A stretch of DNA of 60,676 nucleotides, taken from Deltaproteobacteria bacterium (lineage in GTDB: Bacteria > Desulfobacterota > GWC2-55-46). The notes under the pieces were generated by a model. It made no database searches. It had not been told where the DNA came from and saw nothing but the letters and a program-made list of their open reading frames with translations. Location of the stretch: contig JACPGB010000003.1 of assembly GCA_016182655.1 (NCBI GenBank), forward strand, positions 1 to 60,676, in the 5' to 3' direction. Made by a program: the position numbers and the translations under genes. This document shows positions 21,529 through 43,531 of the stretch, one piece after another (the first letter of the stretch is position 1; each line of letters opens with the position of its first letter).

Positions 21529-21723
21529 TGTCCATAAATTTTACACCTCGATAAAATCGCATCATACTGAAAAATAACGTTTTTTTGAGATGGCCCCGGT
21601 TTCAGGCTGTGTCGCATGTCCATTATTTTTACAGTTTACAGTGTAGCCTGGTTATGTAAATACCAAAAAGCCTGCAATATTGATAGGTTATCTTTTGCGA
21701 GGGGCGCTGGTATTGTTTTTGCA
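21529..21723 (+). promoter_or_regulatory. Sigma-54 promoter with two upstream activator sites (PEP-CTERM operon)
   Basis: TGGTATTGTTTTTGCA at 21708-21723 keeps the sigma-54 GG and GC positions with correct spacing. Upstream are two 17-bp sites, TGTCCATAAATTTTACA (21529-21545) and TGTCCATTATTTTTACA (21617-21633), 88 bp apart, the second 91 bp before the promoter. They form an imperfect dyad TGTnnA / TnnACA. The same set occurs before the PEP-CTERM gene at 42772, so they are probably binding sites for a PrsR-like sigma-54 activator. Confidence 0.75.
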
Positions 21724-21770: not shown

Positions 21771-22397
21771 ATGGCGAAGAAGATGCTCTCAGGACTGGGT
21801 GCCGCGGCGATATTTGTATTTGGTTTTTCCGGAGCGGCCTCAGCCACCACGCTCGATTTTGAATTAGGGTTGATCGGGGGCACATACACGAGCCTTAATC
21901 AGCTTGACGCCTCTTACGGCGGTTTTACCTGGGACTCGAATTACTATGTAACCACCCAGGACTTATACAATGTCAATTACGGGAATTCATCGACCTTTGT
22001 GTCAGGCAACGAGGCCGCCTTCAACGGCTATGGAGTATTGACGGTCACCGCTACCGGCTCGCCTGTCGATCTCACAGGCGCATGGTTTCAGGGGTGGGGC
22101 GCCGGGGACATCGCCGTTTGGGATACCGCTACATCCGTGACCGTGGAAGGGTTCCTCGGCGCGACCTCGGTCGGTACGGCGTCCATGTCACTCAGCCCGT
22201 CGAGCTTTTCTTACCTGAGCTTTAACTTCGGCTCCCCGGTGGATTCGTTCACGGTCACATCGAGCGGCGAAGGACACTGGTGGCTCATGGACGACCTCTC
22301 TTACAACGCCGCCTCTGTCCCCGAGCCGTCGACGCTCATCCTCCTCGGCTCCGGCATGGCAGGGCTCGGGCTTATGAGGCTCAGAAGACGTAAGTAA
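21771..22397 (+). CDS. PEP-CTERM surface protein, copy 1
   Basis: The 208-residue exported protein has a signal peptide (residues 1-26, ending SGAASA), a mature domain with repeated beta-type segments (TLDFELGLIGG, GGFTWDSNYYV, FVSGNEAAFNG), and a C-terminal PEP-CTERM sorting signal VPEPSTLILLGSGMAGLGLM followed by RLRRRK. Exosortase is known to cut at this signal and anchor or secrete such proteins with exopolysaccharide. An AGGAGG precedes the ATG. A paralogue of equal length follows directly. No exosortase gene is in the window. Confidence 0.93.
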   Translation: MAKKMLSGLGAAAIFVFGFSGAASATTLDFELGLIGGTYTSLNQLDASYGGFTWDSNYYVTTQDLYNVNYGNSSTFVSGNEAAFNGYGVLTVTATGSPVDLTGAWFQGWGAGDIAVWDTATSVTVEGFLGATSVGTASMSLSPSSFSYLSFNFGSPVDSFTVTSSGEGHWWLMDDLSYNAASVPEPSTLILLGSGMAGLGLMRLRRRK

Positions 22398-22453
22398 TAA
22401 AATAAAAGGTGCGTCTCGGTCTATCTACTATTTTGAACAGGAGGGCTGTTGAA

Positions 22454-23080
22454 GTGGCTAAGAAGAAGCTCTCAGGACTGGGGGTTGCGGCAATGTTCGT
22501 ATTCGGTATTTCAGGAACGGCCTCAGCCGCCACACTCGATTTTGAATTAGGTTTGACCGGGAGCACATTCGGAGACCTGAACGCGCTCGACGCCTCCTAC
22601 GGCGGTTTTACCTGGGATTCGAATTATTATATCGTCACCCAGGATTATTACAATACTATCTACGGTAATTTATCGACCTTTGTCTCGGGCAACGAGGCCG
22701 CCTTCAACGGCGACGGCGTATTGACAGTCACGACTACCGGCGCGCCTGTCGACCTCACAGGCGCGTGGTTTCAGGGCTGGGGCGTCTATAACGGCTTCTA
22801 TTCCTATACCGCAACGTCAGTTACCGTGGAAGGGTTCCTCGGCGCTACATCGGTCGGTACAGCGAGCATGTCACTCAGCCCGTCGAGCTTTTCTTACCTG
22901 AGCTTCAACTTCGGCTCTCCGGTGGATTCGTTCACGGTCACTTCGAGCGGCTCCGGCACTTGGTGGCTCATGGACGACCTCTCTTACAACGCCGCCTCTG
23001 TCCCCGAGCCGTCGACCTTGCTACTCCTCGGCTCCGGCATGGCAGGGCTTGGGCTTATGAGGCTCAGAAAGCGTAAATAA
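22454..23080 (+). CDS. PEP-CTERM surface protein, copy 2 (tandem paralogue)
   Basis: This 208-residue paralogue of the preceding gene shares most of its sequence: the same signal peptide type, identical runs such as SMSLSPSSFSYLSFNFGSPV and the same VPEPSTLLLLGSGMAGLGLM tail with RLRKRK. It starts at GTG 22454 behind GGAGGG; the start lines up with copy 1. Differences cluster around residues 43-65 and 100-118. It is 56 bp after copy 1 and shares its promoter, ending in a terminator. This is a recent tandem duplication. Confidence 0.93.
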   Translation: MAKKKLSGLGVAAMFVFGISGTASAATLDFELGLTGSTFGDLNALDASYGGFTWDSNYYIVTQDYYNTIYGNLSTFVSGNEAAFNGDGVLTVTTTGAPVDLTGAWFQGWGVYNGFYSYTATSVTVEGFLGATSVGTASMSLSPSSFSYLSFNFGSPVDSFTVTSSGSGTWWLMDDLSYNAASVPEPSTLLLLGSGMAGLGLMRLRKRK

Positions 23081-42523: not shown

Positions 42524-42727
42524 TGTCCACTTTTTTTACAATAACGCGGATTTTTTGTAACTCATTGAAATTTCAAGTCTTATTTAAGGTTATTGTTATC
42601 AAATGAATGATACTCCCTGTCCATTTTTTTTACAATCCATAGTTTTTTAAGAAGATATTATATTTGAAAAAAACTTTATAAATCAAGCGATTATCATTTT
42701 GCCGTGTTGCTTGGCATGTATATTGCT
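42524..42727 (+). promoter_or_regulatory. Sigma-54 promoter with two upstream activator sites (PEP-CTERM 3)
   Basis: TGGCATGTATATTGCT at 42712-42727 is a near-perfect sigma-54 promoter 44 bp before the ATG. Two 17-bp sites, TGTCCACTTTTTTTACA (42524-42540) and TGTCCATTTTTTTTACA (42618-42634), lie 94 bp apart, the second 94 bp before the promoter. The design matches 21529-21723. Confidence 0.85.
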
Positions 42728-42771: not shown

Positions 42772-43458
42772 ATGAAAAGACTCTTTGCAGGGTTTTTTGT
42801 CGCCATCTTGCTTGCGGCCTCGGCTTCGGTTGCAGGCGCCACCACCATCGATACGAGCTCGTCGCCGGTAATCAACGCCTATAGTTTCGGCGAATATTAC
42901 GGGTGGTCAACAATCGGGCAGACCTTCAACCTCAACCCCGGGGACGACACGACCCTCGACTCGGTCACCTTCTATGTCAATGATTACAGCGATCCCAATA
43001 CCGGATGGAGTGGATTTGACAACATCGATTTCGCATTTCATCTTTATGCGTGGGATGGCGGCAGTATTACCGGGGCTTCTCTCTTTACAAGCGGCCAGTT
43101 ATCTACCGCTGTCGCGGATGTCTCAGGCTATGAGACCTTCACGGTCAATACCGGCGGGGTGAGCCTCTCTACCGGCACGGATTATGTCTTTTTCGTCTCG
43201 ACACTGAACTATTACGACGGTTGGTGGTCATTTGGAAAAATAGGGCTGATCAGTGACAGCTCTTATGCCGGCGGCACCCTGGTCATCACCGACTCCACAA
43301 ACCTCGTCGGCACATGGCCAGTGCCCAACAGCTACGACATGCCGTTCGTAATGCAACTTTCGCCATCCCCATCCCAGGTCCCTGAGCCTTCGACACTCCT
43401 CCTCCTCGGCGGCGGACTCGCCGGGCTTGGAATTGTGAGGAGGTTTCGGAAGGGGTAG
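42772..43458 (+). CDS. PEP-CTERM surface protein, copy 3
   Basis: The 228-residue exported protein has a signal peptide (MKRLFAGFFVAILLAASASV, cleavage near AGA), a strand-rich mature domain with a choice-of-anchor-like layout (WSTIGQTFNLNPGDDTTLDS, FHLYAWDGGSI, TGTDYVFFVST) and the sorting tail VPEPSTLLLLGGGLAGLGIV followed by RRFRKG. The mature domain differs from the pair at 21771. It is monocistronic, with its own sigma-54 promoter and a strong terminator. Confidence 0.92.
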   Translation: MKRLFAGFFVAILLAASASVAGATTIDTSSSPVINAYSFGEYYGWSTIGQTFNLNPGDDTTLDSVTFYVNDYSDPNTGWSGFDNIDFAFHLYAWDGGSITGASLFTSGQLSTAVADVSGYETFTVNTGGVSLSTGTDYVFFVSTLNYYDGWWSFGKIGLISDSSYAGGTLVITDSTNLVGTWPVPNSYDMPFVMQLSPSPSQVPEPSTLLLLGGGLAGLGIVRRFRKG

Positions 43459-43497: not shown

Positions 43498-43531
43498 AAC
43501 GCCCGTTCGGAGACGAACGGGCGTTTTTTTT
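43498..43531 (+). terminator. Terminator after PEP-CTERM gene 3
   Basis: Stem AACGCCCGTTCG / CGAACGGGCGTT with GAGA loop and T-run. Confidence 0.93.

What the first reader, a model, noticed from the sequence alone, without database searches (positions are those of the whole stretch)
42524..42727. Same site-site-promoter spacing recurs 21 kb away before an unrelated PEP-CTERM gene
Here the two 17-bp sites and the sigma-54 promoter are 94 and 94 bp apart, against 88 and 91 bp at the first locus. Four sites in two loci define a consensus and a regulon for exosortase substrates.
Basis: seen in the sequence. Interest (0 to 1): 0.68.

Follow-up and report, generated by a model that had tools for sequence, protein, structure and literature searches.

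The report
PEP-CTERM gene promoter with paired enhancers
The two matching DNA boxes and the sigma-54 promoter are real and belong to a known switch for genes whose products are sorted to the cell surface; comparing many relatives shows that the boxes keep to the same side of the DNA helix and often include a DNA-bending site.

Summary
In the 2.9-Mb genome, all eight exact boxes lie upstream of PEP-CTERM genes; the reversed control has none. The genome holds PrsR, PrsK, PrsT, RpoN and exosortase. This is the known PEP-CTERM promoter of Haft et al. 2006 (17-nt motif 1 ending TTTACA, 'sometimes repeated', then sigma-54 motif 2; proposed activator PrsR). So the regulon reading is supported but not new.

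What I add: (1) in the window's class, 79 of 87 PEP-CTERM sigma-54 promoters have at least one box (shuffled 2.5) and 33 have two (shuffled 0.02). (2) Box-to-promoter distances fall on discrete steps (~60, 70, 80, 91, 102, 113 bp) in two distant clades, so 91 and 94 bp represent one helical phase, not a fixed length. (3) An IHF-like site sits between box and promoter in about half of cases, itself phased; the finding's locus has an exact one at 42681-42693. Neither feature is in Haft 2006. No binding or expression was tested.

The parts
42524..42540 (+). distal activator box (Haft motif 1), TGTCCACTTTTTTTACA
   Evidence: exact consensus; 188 bp upstream of the -24 element
42618..42634 (+). proximal activator box, TGTCCATTTTTTTTACA
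   Evidence: 94 bp after the distal box and 94 bp before the -24 element
42681..42693 (+). IHF-like site AATCAAGCGATTA (exact WATCAANNNNTTR), centre 25 bp upstream of the -24 element
   Evidence: enriched and phased across relatives; binding not tested
42712..42726 (+). sigma-54 -24/-12 element TGGCATGTATATTGC (Haft motif 2)
   Evidence: one mismatch to TGGCACNNNNNTTGC; position relative to boxes
42772..43458 (+). PEP-CTERM protein gene, 228 aa
   Evidence: PF07589 E=2.3e-8 in the genome search; TIGR02595 27 bits, cut-off 16
43498..43525 (+). terminator-like hairpin (12 pairs) followed by a T run: single-gene transcription unit
21529..21545 (+). distal box of the first locus, TGTCCATAAATTTTACA
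21617..21633 (+). proximal box of the first locus, TGTCCATTATTTTTACA
21708..21722 (+). sigma-54 element of the first locus, TGGTATTGTTTTTGC (GG and GC intact, two mismatches elsewhere)
21771..22397 (+). PEP-CTERM protein gene, 208 aa, first of a tandem pair
22409..23080 (+). second PEP-CTERM gene of the tandem pair (223 aa from the listed GTG), probably in the same operon

Best explanation
The stretch 42524-42727 is an enhancer plus sigma-54 promoter of the known PEP-CTERM regulon. PrsK phosphorylates PrsR; PrsR binds the two 17-bp boxes as dimers and assembles; the DNA between box and promoter loops, often helped by IHF, and PrsR uses ATP to open the RNA polymerase-sigma54 complex at 42712. 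The product is an exosortase substrate made together with the other PEP-CTERM proteins. Shown here: the boxes, the promoter element, the association with PEP-CTERM genes, the presence of PrsR/PrsK/PrsT/RpoN/exosortase, doubling of the boxes, helical phasing, and IHF-like sites. Inferred: which protein binds, phosphorylation, looping, IHF use, and co-regulation.
For: Exact boxes only upstream of PEP-CTERM genes in this genome. PrsR over the curated cut-off (580 bits vs 502.6), PrsK (414.5 vs 300) and PrsT (403.5 vs 312.2) encoded together with two box-bearing PEP-CTERM genes; one RpoN; two exosortases. Same promoter type in Haft 2006. In D. vulgaris the PrsR homologue DVUA0057 enriched its five predicted PEP-CTERM targets in vitro (PMC3333781). 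pepA of Aquincola depends on RpoN1 and has a mapped start downstream of a -24/-12 element (PMC9850573). Class-wide: 79/87 promoters with at least one box vs 2.5 in shuffles; 33 with two vs 0.02. Box + promoter composites: 47 in 63 genomes of the class and 83 in 210 genomes of another order, 0 reversed controls in either. Helical periodicity R=0.64 and 0.79, no jittered null of 5000 as high. IHF-like sites in 34/64 class spacers vs 4.9 expected on the forward strand.
Against: No binding, start-site or expression data for this organism. The genome has about 20 NtrC-type activators and two PrsR paralogues, so the binder is assigned by association. The first locus has a weak sigma-54 element and no IHF-like match. 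One PEP-CTERM gene (C21) has a perfect sigma-54 element but no TGTCCA box.
Confidence: 0.9

Rival explanations
1. The boxes are bound by another NtrC-type activator, or by the second PrsR paralogue encoded on contig C21, rather than by the C37 PrsR.
For: About 20 NtrC-type proteins score along most of the PrsR model, two over its cut-off. The paralogues are 59% identical with different recognition helices. A congener (G004) that uses the same boxes shows only a C21-type PrsR over the cut-off, though that genome is in about 280 contigs.
Against: The C37 PrsR gene lies within 6 kb of two box-bearing PEP-CTERM genes, while the C21 PEP-CTERM gene next to the second prsR lacks the box.
Confidence: 0.25
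2. The matching spacing of the two window loci is chance or loose: only the boxes and the promoter matter and distances drift freely.
For: The four distances in the window differ (88, 91, 94, 94), and distances in this genome run from 88 to 113.
Against: Box-to-promoter distances cluster one helical turn apart in two independent sets. Box-to-box distances are less regular (R=0.51, p=0.004), so this rival stays partly alive for the second box.
Confidence: 0.08
3. The recurrence reflects a recently duplicated or mobile promoter segment rather than selection on a regulatory layout.
For: Within the genus some promoters are clearly orthologous or copied (similar spacers).
Against: The two window intergenic regions show no overall similarity beyond shuffled level, and the downstream proteins share only the tail.
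Confidence: 0.03

Closest known systems
PEP-CTERM cis-regulatory region with motif 1 / motif 2 (Haft et al. 2006, PMC1569441), proposed target of PrsR
   Same: 17-nt motif ending TTTACA, sometimes repeated; then a sigma-54 motif; intergenic regions over 200 nt; upstream of PEP-CTERM genes; [quoted passage not shown]
   Different: Here two boxes are common, and helical phasing and an IHF-like site are shown; the longest spacings (box start to -24 of 113-114 bp) slightly exceed the reported spacer range; the 5' half of the box varies by lineage (TGTCCA, TGTCAG, TGTCGG, TGTAAA)
D. vulgaris DVUA0057 regulon (PMC3333781)
   Same: PrsR homologue (about 46% identical to the C37 PrsR) with PEP-CTERM targets found by DAP-chip
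   Different: Plasmid-borne; no binding motif validated in that study
IHF-assisted, sigma-54-dependent NtrC-family promoters (NifA, CbrB) and Vibrio qrr enhancers
   Same: Upstream palindromic boxes and an IHF-like site between box and promoter (CbrB and NifA: PMC6296734); tolerance of 10-11-bp steps as reported for qrr enhancers (PMC4740811)
   Different: Different activator family and regulon; IHF use is predicted here, not tested

Membership tests
PrsR-type PEP-CTERM promoter (Haft 2006) | 17-nt motif 1 with 3' end TTTACA | tested here: met
   Four of four boxes
PrsR-type PEP-CTERM promoter (Haft 2006) | sigma-54 -24(GG)/-12(GC) motif after the 3'-most motif 1, spacer 32-92 nt | tested here: met
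   74 and 77 nt between box end and TGGC at the two window loci
PrsR-type PEP-CTERM promoter (Haft 2006) | Located upstream of a PEP-CTERM gene | tested here: met
   PF07589 and TIGR02595 matches at both loci
PrsR-type PEP-CTERM promoter (Haft 2006) | Genome encodes PrsR, PrsK and PrsT | tested here: met
   All three over curated cut-offs on contig C37
PrsR-type PEP-CTERM promoter (Haft 2006) | PrsR binds motif 1 and activates transcription through sigma-54 | not testable with these tools
   Needs footprinting and mutants
IHF-assisted sigma-54 promoter | IHF consensus between activator site and promoter | tested here: met
   Exact match at 42681-42693 for the finding's locus; none at the 21.5-kb locus
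IHF-assisted sigma-54 promoter | IHF binds and is needed for activation | not testable with these tools
   No experimental data; presence of ihfA/ihfB in this genome was not searched

The most novel reading that the evidence does not exclude
PEP-CTERM promoters share a conserved three-part geometry (PrsR box, often doubled; IHF bend; sigma-54 promoter) in which the parts are locked to one helical phase across distant bacterial clades, and lineages change the 5' half of the box together with their PrsR. The geometry would predict members of exosortase-substrate regulons from DNA alone.
Probability: 0.5. Interest if true: 0.45.

Novelty: new member of a known kind. Interest (0 to 1): 0.36.

Why it matters
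The finding itself extends a known regulon to an uncultured lineage related to MAGs labelled Deltaproteobacteria. The comparison adds a quantitative rule (helical steps, frequent doubling, phased IHF-like site) that was not in the original description and makes the looping mechanism of the PrsR regulon directly testable with short insertions. It also gives a specific pattern, with no hits in reversed controls, for finding exosortase substrates, including ones with diverged sorting tails.

Tried and rejected
Recent duplication of one promoter: rejected. RNA element in the leader: no Rfam match. Treating sigma-54 matches alone as evidence: rejected, they occur at chance level. A strict composite search with gap 55-85 found only the two window loci, because other promoters of the genome have longer gaps; the wider search fixed this. 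Linking box variants to PrsR recognition helices was inconclusive: paralogues and incomplete genomes prevent a clean pairing, and several sequences were not recovered by the script. In named beta-proteobacterial genomes the strict composite gave no hit, so the exact pattern is not universal. The D. vulgaris plasmid stretch read here held no composite by a simple scan. In the masked alignment the masked letters matched each other, so only the unmasked score was used.

Full report
Observation. The sequence at 42524-42727 is as described. Two boxes, TGTCCACTTTTTTTACA (42524) and TGTCCATTTTTTTTACA (42618), and the sigma-54-type element TGGCATGTATATTGC (42712) are 94 and 94 bp apart. The first locus has boxes at 21529 and 21617 and the element TGGTATTGTTTTTGC at 21708, giving 88 and 91 bp. 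Up to three mismatches, these are the only four boxes in the window; 0.34 are expected. Each pair is followed by a gene for a protein with a PEP-CTERM tail. The two proteins share only that tail. The 42772 gene is followed by a strong terminator-like hairpin, so it is probably a single-gene unit; at the first locus two similar PEP-CTERM genes follow each other.

Genome context. The genome (2.91 Mb, 60 contigs, 97.6% complete) holds eight exact boxes and none for the reversed pattern. All eight lie ahead of PEP-CTERM genes: two genes on C37, the two window loci, and an operon on C54. A ninth box with one change, TGTTCA, is the proximal box of one C37 gene. The thirteen remaining one-mismatch matches were not examined. 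The box-to-box and box-to-promoter distances are 88/91, 94/94, 108/113 and 99/113; C54 has one clear box at 177 and, by eye, a degenerate one between. C37 encodes PrsR, PrsK and PrsT, all over curated cut-offs, with sugar-nucleotide genes. There are two exosortases and one RpoN. The seventh PEP-CTERM gene, on C21 beside a second prsR and an exosortase, has a perfect sigma-54 element but no TGTCCA box; its only candidate is GGTAAATAAGTTTTACA at 193 bp. A congeneric genome matches a public MAG labelled Deltaproteobacteria (G004 and G099, locus L103).

What is known. Haft et al. 2006 (PMC1569441) reported a 17-nt motif ending TTTACA, sometimes repeated, followed after 62.8 +/- 10.6 nt (32-92) by a 17-nt sigma-54 motif, upstream of 99 of 167 proteobacterial PEP-CTERM genes, and matched it by phylogenetic profile to PrsR, PrsK and PrsT. 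RpoN dependence of a PEP-CTERM gene was later shown in Aquincola (PMC9850573), and a PrsR homologue enriched PEP-CTERM targets in D. vulgaris (PMC3333781). The finding is therefore a new case of a described promoter type.

What the comparison adds. I read upstream regions of 120 PEP-CTERM genes from relatives, 100 of them in the window's class. Among 87 promoters of the class with a sigma-54 element (this genome's six included), 79 have at least one box (one mismatch allowed; shuffled mean 2.5, maximum 10) and 33 have two (shuffled 0.02). The box is TGT-NNR-N5-TTTACA with lineage variants. A composite pattern (box, gap, sigma-54 element) matched 47 places in 63 genomes of the class and 83 places in 210 genomes of the order of Sedimenticola, with no match of the reversed control. 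By my reading, about 28 of 40 sampled downstream ORFs in the second set carry a PEP-CTERM-like tail (17 by the script's strict rule).

Helical phase. Box-to-promoter distances in the two sets peak at about 60, 70, 80, 91, 102 and 113 bp, with few values between. Rayleigh R is 0.64 (class, best period 11.05 bp) and 0.79 (second set, 10.65 bp), and 0.59 and 0.75 after collapsing near-identical promoters by genus or by eye; none of 5000 jittered nulls was as high. The collapse is rough, not tree-based. Box-to-box distances are less regular (R=0.51, p=0.004). Helical phasing is the signature expected of looping between enhancer and promoter, and tolerance of 10-11-bp steps has been reported for sigma-54 qrr enhancers (PMC4740811).

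IHF-like site. While reading spacers I saw the IHF consensus WATCAANNNNTTR (from general knowledge). Counted afterwards, it occurs with at most one mismatch on the forward strand in 34 of 64 class spacers (4.9 expected; exact 15 against 0.3), centred about 13, 24 or 34 bp upstream of the -24 element. In the second set it is mostly on the other strand (19 of 40 on either strand, 5.3 expected). Its distance to the promoter is itself phased (R=0.76 in both). The finding's locus has an exact match at 42681-42693; the 21.5-kb locus has none. The site was noticed before it was counted, so the class-set enrichment is not a blind test; the second set is only a partial replication, since I had also seen its sequences. 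Haft 2006 mentions neither IHF nor phasing in its main text, and searches of the open library found no paper that plainly links PEP-CTERM promoters to IHF or helical phase (the three papers holding both 'PEP-CTERM' and 'integration host factor' were not opened for this point).

Mechanism. The best reading is PrsK-PrsR control: PrsR dimers on two boxes, DNA looping in one helical phase, often with an IHF bend, and ATP-driven opening of RNAP-sigma54. Which of the two PrsR paralogues (59% identical) acts here is open.

Verdict. Observation confirmed; regulon interpretation supported but already described; the added geometry is a refinement worth testing.

Noticed in passing
window 21771-23080: Two adjacent, similar PEP-CTERM genes behind one enhancer-promoter, apparently a tandem duplication.
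   Followed up: partly
L039 (G000:C21:8000-27900): Second exosortase cluster with its own prsR-like gene, a PrsK-like kinase (254.7 bits, below the cut-off of 300), a third NtrC-type regulator below the PrsR cut-off and a very small PEP-CTERM protein whose promoter lacks the TGTCCA box.
   Followed up: partly
L038:3482-5305 and L039:15744-17549: The prsR clusters on C37 and C21 each carry a ~600-aa protein with a CFI-box-CTERM domain (102.7 bits each), a possible second kind of sorting-tail protein.
   Followed up: no
L040 (G000:C54) around 61453-64354: Box and sigma-54 element precede a 136-aa lipoprotein-like ORF followed by a 741-aa PEP-CTERM protein; the same layout occurs in congeners L184 and L192.
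   Followed up: partly
L331 (D. vulgaris plasmid pDEVAL01): Annotated exosortase/PrsK/PrsR cluster; a simple scan found no box plus sigma-54 composite in the 41 kb read.
   Followed up: partly
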